Shown: in pieces, positions 27,086-32,179 of the stretch
How positions within the stretch are numbered: position 1 is the stretch's first letter
Layout of the letters: every line of letters starts with the position of its first letter
Made by a program: the position numbers and the translations under genes
Notes under the pieces: generated by a model
Seen by the model: the letters and a program-made list of their open reading frames with translations, nothing else
The model's database searches: none
Told to the model about the DNA's origin: nothing
Origin: Pyrenophora tritici-repentis
Taxonomy: Eukaryota > Ascomycota > Dothideomycetes > Pleosporales > Pleosporaceae
Assembly (NCBI RefSeq): GCF_003171515.1
Contig: NC_089397.1
Span: 930,001-994,000 of the forward strand
Direction of reading: 5' to 3'
Length of the DNA: 64,000 bases

Positions 27086-29357
27086 ATGTCTTCAGCATCA
27101 CAGGAAAAACTACATAGGGTCGCTAGTTCGGACGCGGGCGACGACGAGCGGACCCTCTACGAACACACCGATGATGAAAGTCACGACGGCAGGCCCTCAG
27201 GCGAACTTTCCACCCGCGATCGCGAGATCCTAGACTCGGAAGACGAGCGCGAAGAGCTTCTTACACAGAAAGAGGGCATAAAGGATATTTTGAGCCGCAG
27301 GGGCTCCTCCATCAAGGTTGGGAAATGGGGCAAGAAGAAGCCGAAGACGCGTAGGAAAGGCGAAGATGCAGAATCGAGTGTACTCATGTATGAAATGGAG
27401 GAGGGCATGGGCGCTTCTTCTCAAAGCTTACGTTCGAGGAGAAGTTCCGAGGGCGACGAGCAACGATTGCTTGCGAGCGCATTGCATCAGAAGGTATGTT
27501 GACTTCCACGTATGCGCGAATGAAGCTGACAGTGGTTGTAGGCGCGCCGGAAGATTTTCTATCAACGGATAGCCATATATATCCTTATAATCATTCTTTT
27601 TGTCGTCCTCCTCGCCGCCGCCTATAATCTCTCTACCCCGAAAGATGTCAAAGACCTGGCCGCCATGGTCTCGAATGGCACCTCCCTTTTCGCCCCTACA
27701 ACCATTCTGATATCGCTCGACGGTTTCCGTGCCGATTTCCTGTATCGCAACCTTACGCCTACACTCAATCAACTGATACAAGAGGGTATTTCGCCCAAGT
27801 ACATGCTTCCTAGCTTTCCGAGCGTAACCTTCCCTAATCATTACACCATGGCGACTGGCATGTATCCCGAGGCGCATGGGATAGTTTCGAACACGTTCTG
27901 GGACCCAAAACTACAGCAAGAGTTCTACTACACGGATCCTAAACGAAGTTTACAACCGCACTGGTGGGGAGGCGAGCCCCTGTGGGTAACGGCCGAGAAG
28001 CAAAAGGTCCGGGCAGCAGTGCACATGTGGCCCGGGTCGGAAGCGAACATCTTGGAACAAGAGATTGCATACGTTGACAAGTACAATGGCTCGGAAGTGC
28101 TTGATAGGAAGGTCGACCGCATCATGGGCTTACTCGATCTTCCCGGTTCCAAGGACATTGGCGCAAGCGCACTCACGCCTCGGCCCCAGCTCATCGCTGC
28201 ATATGTCCCCAATGTAGATGGCGACGGCCACAAATACGGGCCCAACAGCACTGAGATTCGGGATACGATCACAGCCGTAGATACTATGATGGGCGGCATT
28301 TTGGAAGGATTGAAGCAGCGAAACCTCACCGGTATCGTTAACGTCGTTGTAGTGTCTGACCACGGCATGGCCACAACCGACATTTCGCGCCTCATCCAAC
28401 TCGAAGACCTCATCGACCCCAGCGAACTCTCCCACACCGACGGCTGGCCTCTTTACGGTCTCCGGCCGAAAGACCCATCCTCGCTCCAACGCCTCTACAA
28501 GCAAGTCAAAGACCGCACCGCTAACAACCCCAATGTCGAAGTCTACCTCCGCGAGAACATGCCGGAACGATACCACTTCTCCAAGAATGACCGCATCGCC
28601 CCACTGTGGATCATACCGAAAACAGGCTGGGCCATTGTCACAAAAGATGAGTTCAACATTGAAGCCGGCAAGAAAGATGGCGAGATATACCATCCCCGTG
28701 GTCTACACGGCTACGACCACGAGCATCCTCTCATGCGAGCGATTTTCGTAGCTAGAGGTCCTGCGTTCCCACATACGCCTGGTAGCATGATGAAGCCTTT
28801 TCGTAAGTAACCCTTCCTTTCAAAACACGGCTATGTCAGTCCGCGCAAAAAGGAAGAGTAGTTTGCTAACAAACACCCCAGAAAATATCGAACTCTACAA
28901 TATAATCTGCGACTCCATTAACCTCACCCCCGCCCCCAACAACGGTACCTTGCGTCTCCCCCTCCGCCCCACTGGTCTCCACAACGAGACCCAAACCGCA
29001 GCCTCGGACCACACGCCTGAAGATCCCGTCCCACCCTATCCGTCCTCCTCGTCCGCCGCCCTACCGTCCTCCGCGGAGCTGGCTTCCATGCCCTCGGCTC
29101 TCGGCTCGCTATCCAGCATCGCGGCGTCGGCGTCGGGCATGGAGGATACGTCACCGACGGTTGACGAGGTGCCTGTCAGACCAACGCCTCCCACTGTACG
29201 GCCTACAGATGCTGCAGTAAAGGAAGGGGGCAAGAATGAGGAAGCGGGAGAGGATGGGCCCACGGGAGAGATGAGTTTGTGGGAGTGGTTGACGCACAAG
29301 GCGGATGGGATTAAGGATTGGGTGGATCAGTTTGTCGAGAGTCATGTTCCTATTTAA
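27086..29357 (+). CDS. Type II membrane nucleotide pyrophosphatase/phosphodiesterase (NPP family)
   Basis: Exons 27086-27493, 27542-28802 and 28882-29357 give 714 residues. A charged cytosolic N-terminus of ~145 residues is followed by one membrane segment (IAIYILIIILFVVLLAAAY). The type I phosphodiesterase domain (PF01663) follows. It shows the metal site LISLDGFRADF, the nucleophile Thr in FPSVTFPNHYTMATG, VVVSDHGMATT, and LHGYDHEHPLMRAIFVARG. Family members hydrolyse extracellular or vacuolar nucleotides and phosphodiester bonds, as yeast Npp1/Npp2 do under phosphate shortage. The C-terminal ~130 residues are a Pro/Ser-rich tail ending IKDWVDQFVESHVPI. The active-site residues all appear intact. 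Confidence 0.93.
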
Positions 29358-29574: not shown

Positions 29575-29772
29575 CTACATGATATCACACTTTGATGGCA
29601 ATCCACATGGACCCTCCTTGTCCTTTTCCGTCTTTTGCTGAGGTCCAGCAGAAGACGCAACAGGAGCACTTGTAGTTGTAGTGGCAGTGTTGGTAGCCGC
29701 CGGTGCTGTTCCATTCGTAGCCGCAGCACCGTTGGTCTCCACTGCCTTCTTCTCAGCCGCACCACCATCTAG
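29575..29772 (-). other. Candidate readthrough extension of the flavodoxin-like gene, ending in a CaaX box
   Basis: Directly after the TGA stop (29775-29773) the same frame stays open for 65 codons, to TAG at 29577-29575. The extension starts LDGGAAEKKAVETNG, continues as an Ala/Thr/Ser-rich linker, and ends GPCGLPSKCDIM, so its last four residues (C-D-I-M) form a prenylation motif with a second Cys seven residues before the CaaX cysteine. The stop context is CAG TGA CTA G, the context known for efficient UGA readthrough in fungi and animals. If decoded, the protein would be 270 residues. No intron of normal size can remove the stop. Confidence 0.7.
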
Positions 29773-30613
29773 TCACTGGTGAGCCTTGGCTACGGCCTCG
29801 TAGAAGGCCTTGCCCTGAGCGGTAGCAATGCTGAGCTCGAGGGGAGTGGGCTGGCGCGAGCCGTCGCCGGCGGAGAAGGTACCGGCGCCCCAGGGGGAGC
29901 CACCGTGGACCTCGTCGAGGTTTGCGAGTTGGGCTGGAGAGGGGGTTAGTATACCAGATATTACTGACTCGCCATCCAAGCTTGTGGAGTGTATACATAC
30001 CGAAAGCGGTCTTGTAGCCTAGAGGCACGTAGATGAATCCGTGGTGCACGAGCGTGCTCATGGCAGCAATGCAGGTGCTCTCCTGTCCACCACCGAGGGT
30101 ACCAGTTGAGACGAAAAGACCAGCGTATTTGCCCCAGAAAGCACCCTGTTGCCATTGTTTGCCTGTCATATCCCAAAAAGTTTTGAACTGGGCAGGAAAG
30201 TTCCCATACCTGCTGATCAGCATCGGGATGAAAGGTCAAGGTTAACAATCTTCTTACCTAGTAGGGATACCGAAGAGGATACCATCGAACTCCTCAAGGA
30301 TGGAAGGGTCTTCGACGACAGGGACATCGGCGGCCTTGGCGGGCGCGTGCATCTTAGCGAGCACTTCCTCAGGGAGGGTCTCCTTGACTCTGGTTGAGTT
30401 GTTAGTATAAACGAGAGAAAGTAGAAAGAAGGGGTACATACTGGAAGAGCTTGGCTTCACCGCCAGCCTCCTGGATACCCTTCAACTCAGCATCGGCCTG
30501 GTTTCACTGTTAGCTCAAGCTATTCTGGGTCGCCATAAGACAGCGTCTGAACGTACCAATTGCTTGATGTGGCCATACATGGAATAGTAAACAATGGCAA
30601 TCTTGGGAGCCAT
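29773..30613 (-). CDS. Flavodoxin-like NAD(P)H:quinone reductase (Alt a 7 / Pst2-Ycp4 family)
   Basis: Exons 30613-30557, 30497-30442, 30389-30258, 30209-30001 and 29933-29773 give 204 residues, the length of the Alternaria allergen Alt a 7. The family is WrbA-like: an FMN enzyme that reduces quinones by two electrons and protects against oxidative stress. The start [19 protein letters not shown] carries the FMN phosphate loop. [38 protein letters not shown] and [18 protein letters not shown] are diagnostic. The stop after AKAHQ lies in a readthrough context, and the frame continues to a CaaX box (see 29575-29772). The four introns are small and in frame. Yeast Ycp4 is a longer relative reported as lipid-modified, which fits a membrane-bound form. 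Confidence 0.95.
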
Positions 30614-32179
30614 CTTGAACGCTTTGGGGGGGGGGTATCAAAAACTTGCGAGGAAAAAGAGTCTAGGTAATGAGGAGATGTAGAGTAACTATCGAGGTAC
30701 AAAACAAAGACGAAGCTGCCTAGTGGAGAGACGAAGCGCTCCCCATCTTTATACCTTTGACGCACCCCACCACCCGATCCATACCCTATTCCCCGATTTC
30801 TTTCTGCAAACATCATGCAATGTCTTCCCACGACCGGACCAATGGTGCCGAAGCATCGAGACTCCACAACCCAGCGCTCCACGCTCAAAAGCTTTCCCCG
30901 ATGCTAAGAAAAGCGTAGAAGCAGACGGTGGAAAGCATGGCAACGGGGGTGCCTGCCCCTCCTCACCAAACCTCTTGCAGTTTAGCGCAATCCACATGTC
31001 GCCTTGTTTGCAGTAGCGGCGTTGCACGCGATGCATTTTCAGGGCACGGTCAGTGGATTACATGAGGCTTTGGTAAGTGATTGAAAATACGCTATTGCTA
31101 TCACGATCCGCCATCCGGATAACTGTAACCAAACTCTAAGCTCGCAGGCTGTCAAAGTCGCGTCCCGTGCTTCCGTGATTGTCATCGATTCGTTCCGAGT
31201 GTCGACGGCACAGTTCCGCCCGCAGGTTTGCGCCTTTCAGGCTTGTCAGCGCCATGCGTGCTTACTGATCTGCAATCTACCAGGGATGATGTCATGCATC
31301 TGCTTTGGACGGAAAAGCGGGTGTTAGTAAGCTCGCACATTCGCTGTTCGCGATTCCCGCCCGGAAGCTGGAAAAAGCAGGATTGCCGTGCCAAATTTTT
31401 ACGAGGCGAGCGTCTTGTAAGAAGGATGAGAATACGATGGTACCTTACGCTTTCCTGCTTTGAGCAGACTTGCGTCGCCCAAAGCATTTAGGTTGGGAGG
31501 CGGGAGGTGTGGCCATTGCAGTCCGCTAACCTGTACTACTACCCCACAGCTATGACACCCAGCATCAACACCTACCTACATAGGTAGTTACGTTACGCTT
31601 CTGCCGCAAGCCTTCCACTACAATTTGATACACTCGTGAGATTTTCAACATCCGTAGTTGTACCGCCACTGAAGACCCTGAAAGGACCCTGAAAGGGGAA
31701 CCCGGTCGCGTCCGCCTGGCAGGCCTGGGCGACAGCGAAGCTTTCTGTCAGCATACCCAACATATGGATCTCGCCGCAACTTGAAGCATGCGAGCCATAT
31801 TTGGACCAAATCTAACCGCCTGCTGAACGCTCAAACGTACTGGCTTCTCACTACTTCACCGGCATTCATTCAATGAGAATTAGGCTTATCATTCCATTTG
31901 TCTTGGGTATCCAAGTACAATGCCGTTCTCCAGAACGGTCCGAAACGTCGTATATATATATATCTATATACGAGCAACCCGATTGCGTGGATGATTAGGC
32001 CGATCGCAATACAGGGAGCTCACGTCAGAAACGGTGGGTGAACTGCCTGCAACAGACATGCAGTCATCATGTTTGTACTTATAAGTATATCCACCACGTA
32101 GCCTCCTAGATATATCTTTTTTACGCCGTTTTGCGAAATCGGCGCGCCGCTCATTACCCCACATTCATTACTTGCAATT
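30614..32179. other. Intergenic, 1.6 kb
   Basis: Divergent promoters of the flavodoxin-like gene and the protease. Short frames on both strands have no support. A run of seven to nine G lies in the flavodoxin leader (about 30626). A short direct repeat of ggaccctgaaag occurs near 31680. A perfect 7-bp inverted repeat (31923-31938) and a TA tract (31951-31970) lie about 200-260 bp before the protease start. Confidence 0.5.
31951..31970. repeat. Short TA tract upstream of the protease gene
   Basis: Twenty bases of alternating T and A broken by one C, about 210 bp before the start codon at 32180. It could supply a TATA-like element or be a simple repeat. Confidence 0.6.

What the first reader, a model, noticed from the sequence alone, without database searches (positions are those of the whole stretch)
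29575..29790. Programmed UGA readthrough that would add a CaaX lipid anchor to a flavodoxin-like quinone reductase
Seen: the 204-residue reductase stops at CAG TGA CTA G. The same frame then stays open for 65 codons, ending in C-D-I-M and TAG, with a second Cys seven residues before the CaaX cysteine. Composition is that of a flexible Ala/Thr/Ser linker, not of random 3' UTR. Known: UGA CUA is the efficient readthrough context described for fungal glycolytic enzymes that gain a peroxisomal signal, and for several animal genes; a Met-ending CaaX box is a farnesylation motif. Inference: a small share of ribosomes makes a membrane-bound isoform while most product stays soluble, the same logic as cryptic peroxisomal targeting but with prenylation. 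Yeast keeps soluble and lipid-modified relatives as separate genes (Pst2/Rfs1 and Ycp4).
Basis: partly seen in the sequence, partly recalled or inferred. Interest (0 to 1): 0.93.

Follow-up and report, generated by a model that had tools for sequence, protein, structure and literature searches.

The report
Readthrough adds hidden membrane-anchor tail
A fungal quinone-reducing enzyme appears to come in two forms from one gene: most copies stop normally and stay soluble, while a leaky stop codon would let some ribosomes add a 65-residue tail ending in a lipid-anchor signal that is conserved among filamentous ascomycete fungi.

Summary
Observation confirmed, interpretation strengthened. A five-exon minus-strand gene (30613-29773) encodes a 204-aa type IV NAD(P)H:quinone oxidoreductase (WrbA/Pst2/Alt a 7 family). 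It ends in UGA CUA G, a known fungal readthrough context; the frame then runs 65 codons to GPCGLPSKCDIM-TAG. New evidence is comparative. Of 197 proteins listed by three searches, 71 end in a related tail, and 69 of these fit CGLPxxCaaX with an aliphatic a2. They include members of seven Pezizomycotina classes. Seven of the 71 carry W at the stop position, always followed by L and in five by LDG, as in the window; at least two look like UGA translated as Trp. The other 64 reach the tail without a visible stop residue, probably through model introns. In the window, none of 7 in-frame GT-AG pairs tested across the stop has a branch-point motif. Best explanation: programmed readthrough yields a minor isoform, probably prenylated and S-acylated, on the plasma membrane. 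Neither readthrough nor lipidation was observed, no DNA of relatives could be read, and alternative splicing in some lineages stays open. New variant of a known kind.

The parts
30557..30613 (-). exon 1 of the reductase (start codon 30613-30611)
   Evidence: translation aligns with homologues
30442..30497 (-). exon 2
30258..30389 (-). exon 3
30001..30209 (-). exon 4
29773..29933 (-). exon 5 up to and including the first stop codon
29769..29775 (-). UGA CUA G: leaky stop codon and context
   Evidence: context described in PMC4207609
29578..29772 (-). 65-codon in-frame readthrough extension (variable linker plus anchor)
   Evidence: related tails; tail of relative P0095 modelled with low confidence, as expected of disorder
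29578..29613 (-). conserved terminal block GPCGLPSKCDIM
   Evidence: CGLP in 71 of 197 listed proteins; 69 of those 71 fit CGLPxxCaaX
29605..29607 (-). upstream Cys codon, possible S-acylation site
   Evidence: conserved in the tails; lipidation inferred
29578..29589 (-). CaaX box CDIM, probably farnesylated
   Evidence: a2 aliphatic in 69 of 69; lipidation inferred
29575..29577 (-). second stop codon TAG

Best explanation
The gene makes two proteins from one mRNA. Most ribosomes stop at UGA and release a soluble 204-aa quinone reductase. A minority misread UGA in the weak UGA CUA G context (amino acid inserted unknown), continue 65 codons and end in GPCGLPSKCDIM. Prenylation of the last Cys, and probably S-acylation of the Cys six residues upstream, then fixes this minor isoform to the plasma membrane, likely eisosomes, where it can keep ubiquinone reduced against lipid peroxidation. 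Shown: the sequence anatomy and the conservation of the tail. Inferred: readthrough, its low rate, lipidation, location and function.
For: UGA CUA G in the window; PMC4207609 reports UGA CU(A) as sufficient for readthrough in Ustilago and notes a following G in many of its genes. Related tail end in 71 of 197 listed proteins from at least seven classes. W at the stop position followed by L in 7 of 7 and by LDG in 5 of 7; P0106 and P0123 also have W directly after their CaaX, pointing to UGA read as Trp. Post-stop residues in register: P0122 10, P0121 6, P0106 5, P0142 5, P0170 4 of 11 identical. P0106 and P0157 run without break through all four intron positions of the window gene, so probably come from spliced mRNA that keeps this stretch. 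None of the 7 in-frame GT-AG pairs tested across the stop holds a branch-point motif. Yeast precedent: Candida Ycp4 has a ~90-aa extension ending in CAAX (PMC4556627 passage); S. cerevisiae Ycp4 is palmitoylated (PMC7943015 passage) and listed as an Erf2 substrate beside Ras1 and Ras2 (PMC5364179 passage).
Against: No readthrough, peptide or localisation data. No DNA of relatives was available, so conservation of TGA CTA is inferred from translations; W could be TGG in P0121, P0122, P0142, P0157 and P0170. In 64 of the 71 tails nothing stands for the stop, which fits model introns but would equally fit real ones. The post-stop match is weak for P0123 (1332 of 20000 shuffles as good) and P0157 (1008). 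Codon usage in the tail differs from the enzyme's. RNA folding after the stop is unremarkable (z -1.38, 17 of 200 shuffles as good). One donor overlapping the stop (GTGACT) fits a loose consensus 5 of 6, though its only in-frame acceptor in the tested range lacks a branch point.
Confidence: 0.82

Rival explanations
1. The tail is real, but it is joined by alternative splicing of a short intron that removes the stop, not by readthrough (in the window, or in other lineages only).
For: 64 of the 71 tail-bearing proteins, all of them NCBI models, reach the tail with no residue at the stop position, e.g. P. tritici-repentis P0001, Alternaria P0006/P0008/P0010, Penicillium and Aspergillus. Many break right after the VSK/VAK lysine, where KVNFA-type sequence could supply AAG|GTN (inferred). 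Fungi attach hidden peroxisomal signals by either route, in a mosaic across species (PMC4973966 passage).
Against: In the window, with donors sought in exon 5 and lengths of 36-140 nt, only 7 in-frame GT-AG pairs cross the stop and none holds a CTRAC or YTRAY motif; three of the gene's four real introns have CTAAC 12 nt from the acceptor. P0001's 16-residue gap corresponds to one of the 7 (48 nt, donor GTAGCC, 3 of 6 consensus positions). Apparent junctions differ between species, also among 16 Penicillium models. The window has KAHQ, so no K|GT donor there. Conserved LDG after the stop would be unexpected inside an intron. Donors in exon 4 or earlier were not enumerated.
Confidence: 0.12
2. 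The tail is translated by readthrough but serves another purpose, such as degradation or partner binding, and the CaaX is not lipidated.
For: The readthrough extension of yeast PDE2 leads to degradation (PMC4973966 and PMC3777964 passages).
Against: The conserved part is the terminal block, with a2 aliphatic in 69 of 69, while the linker varies.
Confidence: 0.04
3. Chance open frame or annotation artefact.
For: The other two frames are also open here.
Against: Nearly the same terminal block in proteins of seven classes.
Confidence: 0.02

Closest known systems
UGA CUA readthrough of fungal and animal metabolic enzymes giving peroxisomal isoforms (PMC4207609; passages and first of five parts of the text seen)
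   Same: Same stop context including the following G, one gene giving two localisations of a soluble enzyme, hidden C-terminal signal.
   Different: The hidden signal is a CaaX box with a second Cys, not PTS1; the linker is long; the enzyme is a quinone reductase.
Flavodoxin-like proteins Pst2, Rfs1, Ycp4 (S. cerevisiae) and Pst1, Pst2, Pst3, Ycp4 (C. albicans)
   Same: Same enzyme family; Candida Ycp4 has a ~90-aa extension ending in CAAX; eisosome or plasma membrane location; S. cerevisiae Ycp4 is palmitoylated (passages).
   Different: The yeasts have several genes, one with the CAAX extension; here one gene with a leaky stop. Homology of the Ycp4 tail to this tail was not tested.
Drosophila Syx17 readthrough extension with predicted farnesyltransferase signal (PMC3840789 passages)
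   Same: Readthrough extension with a predicted prenylation signal.
   Different: Unrelated protein, animal; a prediction in the passages seen.
PaYIP3 -1 frameshift of Podospora and other Pezizomycotina (PMC3777964 passages)
   Same: A C-terminal extension made by translational recoding and conserved across most Pezizomycotina examined there.
   Different: Frameshift instead of readthrough; no lipid signal in the passages seen.

Membership tests
NAD(P)H:quinone oxidoreductase type IV (WrbA/Pst2) | Match to the curated family model above cut-off | tested here: met
   TIGR01755 198.9 bits, cut-off 132.5; solved Pst2 (5mp4) 251 bits
NAD(P)H:quinone oxidoreductase type IV (WrbA/Pst2) | FMN binding and quinone reduction | not testable with these tools
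   needs purified protein
Programmed UGA CUA stop codon readthrough | UGA followed by CU(A), with G next favoured | tested here: met
   TGA CTA G in the window
Programmed UGA CUA stop codon readthrough | In-frame extension conserved between species | tested here: met
   related tail in 71 of 197 listed proteins, seven classes; two searches used the tail, so the share is no frequency
Programmed UGA CUA stop codon readthrough | UGA and its context conserved between species | tested here: inconclusive
   W at the stop position in 7 of 71 tails, followed by L in 7 of 7 and LDG in 5 of 7; no DNA of relatives
Programmed UGA CUA stop codon readthrough | No splice route that removes the stop | tested here: inconclusive
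   window: 7 in-frame GT-AG pairs (donor in exon 5, 36-140 nt), none with a branch-point motif; longer introns, earlier donors and relatives not tested; no RNA data
Programmed UGA CUA stop codon readthrough | Extended protein detected | not testable with these tools
   needs ribosome profiling, reporters or peptides
CaaX-prenylated protein | C-terminal Cys-a-a-X with aliphatic a2 | tested here: met
   CDIM in the window; a2 I/V/M/L in 69 of 69 tails of standard form, 2 of 71 set aside
CaaX-prenylated protein | Prenylation in vivo | not testable with these tools
   needs labelling or membrane fractionation
Ycp4 | Flavodoxin-like enzyme with a C-terminal extension ending in CaaX | tested here: inconclusive
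   the layout is the same only after readthrough; homology of the tail to yeast Ycp4 not tested

The most novel reading that the evidence does not exclude
Filamentous ascomycetes have kept, since before their classes split, a translational switch that sends a share of one quinone reductase to the membrane as a doubly lipidated, Ras-like anchored isoform. Oxidative stress, which lowers termination fidelity, raises that share and so reinforces the membrane against lipid peroxidation. The leaky stop does the job for which yeasts keep separate genes (Pst2 and Ycp4).
Probability: 0.3. Interest if true: 0.9.

Novelty: new variant of a known kind. Interest (0 to 1): 0.82.

Why it matters
The fungal readthrough cases in the papers seen mainly hide peroxisomal signals. 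A deeply conserved readthrough isoform with a prenylation signal would show that leaky stops also control membrane anchoring. It would explain why public gene models of this enzyme disagree at the 3' end, and it offers a testable link between termination fidelity and membrane antioxidant defence. The abstract of PMC4207609 speculates that readthrough has functions beyond peroxisomal targeting.

Tried and rejected
The tail-weighted region search gave 5 hits among 259 candidates; a profile of 12 C-terminal pieces worked better. Tail DNA patterns in viral and prokaryotic contigs gave one match each, L015 and L016, both in unrelated short frames; a profile scan of viral contigs gave 27 pattern matches and no relative. 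The GPCGLP-type DNA pattern in the own genome gave 9 matches against 3 for the reversed control; of the 8 given as loci only the window's continues as CGLPxxCaaX-stop, the ninth was not read. RNA structure after the stop was not remarkable. A second gene of the family was looked for in this genome: all 5 hits are exons of this gene; the tool scores only best candidates, and PMC6916069 lists two homologues in A. brassicicola (passage).

Literature: ten searches. No listed title, abstract start or passage that I saw reports a readthrough-derived CaaX in this enzyme. Four lists were cut short (10 of 434, 20 of 1192, 15 of 23, 12 of 156), most subscription journals are missing, and no paper was read whole. 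The Podospora genome paper PMC2441463 mentions 14 genes possibly needing frameshift or readthrough in a supplement that I could not open (passages); this gene may be on that list.

Changed on re-checking: the splice membership row is now 'inconclusive' because earlier donors and longer introns were not tested.

Full report
WHAT IS THERE. On the minus strand, exons 30613-30557, 30497-30442, 30389-30258, 30209-30001 and 29933-29773 encode a 204-aa protein. It scores 198.9 bits against the NAD(P)H:quinone oxidoreductase type IV model TIGR01755 (cut-off 132.5); its best solved relative is yeast Pst2 (5mp4). The stop is TGA, followed by CTA G. The frame continues for 65 codons and ends GPCGLPSKCDIM, then TAG at 29577-29575. 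The closest database protein, P0001 (Pyrenophora tritici-repentis, 254 aa), is identical to the window's read-through product over its first 198 and last 56 residues and lacks 16 residues around the stop, so the window is very likely from that species (inference).

IS IT MORE THAN CHANCE. Openness says little: the other two frames are open too (74 and 55 codons), and codon usage in the tail differs from the enzyme's (7 of 65 codons end in C, against 92 of 204). Conservation settles it. Three searches listed 197 different proteins: the best 120 of 6433, all 5, the best 120 of 4310. Of the 197, 71 contain CGLP near the C terminus: 14 first listed, 2, 55. Of these 71, 69 fit CGLPxxCaaX; P0146 (one residue shorter) and P0154 (named partial) were set aside. 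Among the 69, GP precedes in 68, a2 is I, V, M or L in 69, and X is L 32, Q 17, M 13, S 4, V 1, A 1, T 1. Look-ups put examples in Pezizomycetes, Geoglossomycetes, Leotiomycetes, Sordariomycetes, Lecanoromycetes, Dothideomycetes and Eurotiomycetes, plus Sarcosagium of uncertain class. Searches used the tail itself, so 71 of 197 is a product of selection, not a frequency. The 83 listed proteins of 196-207 aa without CGLP end near the first stop and cannot show whether a tail follows. Some proteins in the set are close relatives of each other.

READTHROUGH OR SPLICING. Of the 71, 64 reach the tail with nothing that I can assign to the stop; all 64 are NCBI models, presumably with introns that skip it (DNA not seen). 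Apparent junctions differ between species and among 16 Penicillium models (SKVH-AESKPE, AKVN-PHSESKPE, SK-PESSTP, AK-PEDSTG and others). A frequent break is right after the lysine of VSK or VAK, where KVNFA-type sequence could offer AAG|GTN (inferred); the window has KAHQ and no such donor. In the window I listed GT-AG pairs of 36-140 nt with the donor in exon 5 that cross the stop and keep frame: 7 exist, their donors fit a loose consensus at 3 to 5 of 6 positions, and none contains a CTRAC or YTRAY motif. Of the gene's four real introns three have CTAAC 12 nt from the acceptor; the other has only looser motifs (TTAAC 32, TTGAC 26, CTGAT 7 nt away). Donors in earlier exons, GC donors and longer introns were not tested.

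One search found W between the last-helix landmark and the tail in 11 of the 71. In four (P0158, P0161, P0168, P0173) it lies in the enzyme's last helix and was set aside. In seven it stands at the stop position by my alignment: the environmental P0106, P0121, P0122, P0123, P0142, P0157 and the NCBI model P0170. W is followed by L in 7 of 7 and by LDG in 5 of 7, as in the window. P0106 and P0123 also have W directly after their CaaX, where the tail's own stop should lie, which fits UGA translated as Trp by the gene caller; in the other five W could be TGG (inference). Comparing the 11 residues after the stop with the window: P0122 10 identical, P0121 6, P0106 5, P0142 5, P0170 4, P0123 3, P0157 2; shuffles as good, of 20000: 0, 2, 7, 53, 18, 1332, 1008. 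Five of seven are well beyond shuffles, two are not. P0106 and P0157 run through all four intron positions without break, and P0122, which starts in exon 3, through the last two; they are probably from spliced mRNA, or else from genes without these introns. P0121, P0123 and P0142 appear to carry translated intron and so to be genomic (inference). P0123 has nearly the tail of the NCBI model P0095 (Halenospora) and contains the stretch VNFA-W-LAEGSAKE that P0095 lacks.

HOW IT PROBABLY WORKS. UGA CU(A) is sufficient for readthrough in Ustilago, and a G at the next position was noted in many of the genes found (PMC4207609, passages and first of five parts of the text). The tail is a variable linker with a nearly invariant end. 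AlphaFold2 on P0095 (25 sequences, mean pLDDT 68.4) gives residues 203-243 and 246-253 below 50, as for disorder, but 117-120 and 160-173 of the enzyme are below 50 too, so this is weak support. The end carries two Cys six residues apart and a CaaX box, the layout of doubly lipidated Ras-type proteins (resemblance recalled). Candida Ycp4, of the same family, has a ~90-aa extension ending in CAAX, and the family was found at the plasma membrane and protects against lipid peroxidation (PMC4556627 passages). S. cerevisiae Ycp4 is reported as palmitoylated (PMC7943015 passage) and is listed as an Erf2 substrate with Ras1 and Ras2 (PMC5364179 passage). Yeast flavodoxin-like proteins are eisosomal (PMC5753163 and PMC6723945 passages). 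I infer a soluble major form and a lipid-anchored minor form from one gene. PMC4207609 notes that oxidation of ribosomal proteins affects termination fidelity (author summary), and a review links oxidative stress with more stop codon readthrough (PMC11616006 passage); a redox-tuned switch is the bold reading and is untested.

NOVELTY. Readthrough that gives dual localisation is known. A predicted farnesyltransferase signal in a Drosophila Syx17 extension is in print (PMC3840789 passages), and human extensions have been screened for prenylation sites (PMC4359377 passage). I saw no report for this enzyme in ten searches (some lists cut short), and the Podospora genome supplement with 14 recoding candidates (PMC2441463 passages) could not be opened. 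I file it as a new variant of a known kind.

Noticed in passing
27542-28810 and probably on to 29357, + strand: Convergent neighbour: type I phosphodiesterase/nucleotide pyrophosphatase (PF01663, 351.5 bits). An open frame downstream, probably its last exon, stops at 29357, about 220 bases from the end of the readthrough tail.
   Followed up: partly
30626-30635, - strand: A run of ten C in the 5' leader, 12 bases upstream of the reductase start codon.
   Followed up: no
P0170 (Sarcosagium campestre MAG): Carries W-L-D-G at the stop position in an NCBI model; if this is a real TGG, the anchored form would be made constitutively there.
   Followed up: no
public gene models P0001, P0006, P0008, P0010 and others: Inconsistent apparent junctions before the tail look like gene callers bypassing a leaky stop.
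   Followed up: partly
A. brassicicola AB10448.1 and AB02777.1 (PMC6916069 passage): Two flavodoxin-like homologues are listed there, while only one gene was found in this genome.
   Followed up: no
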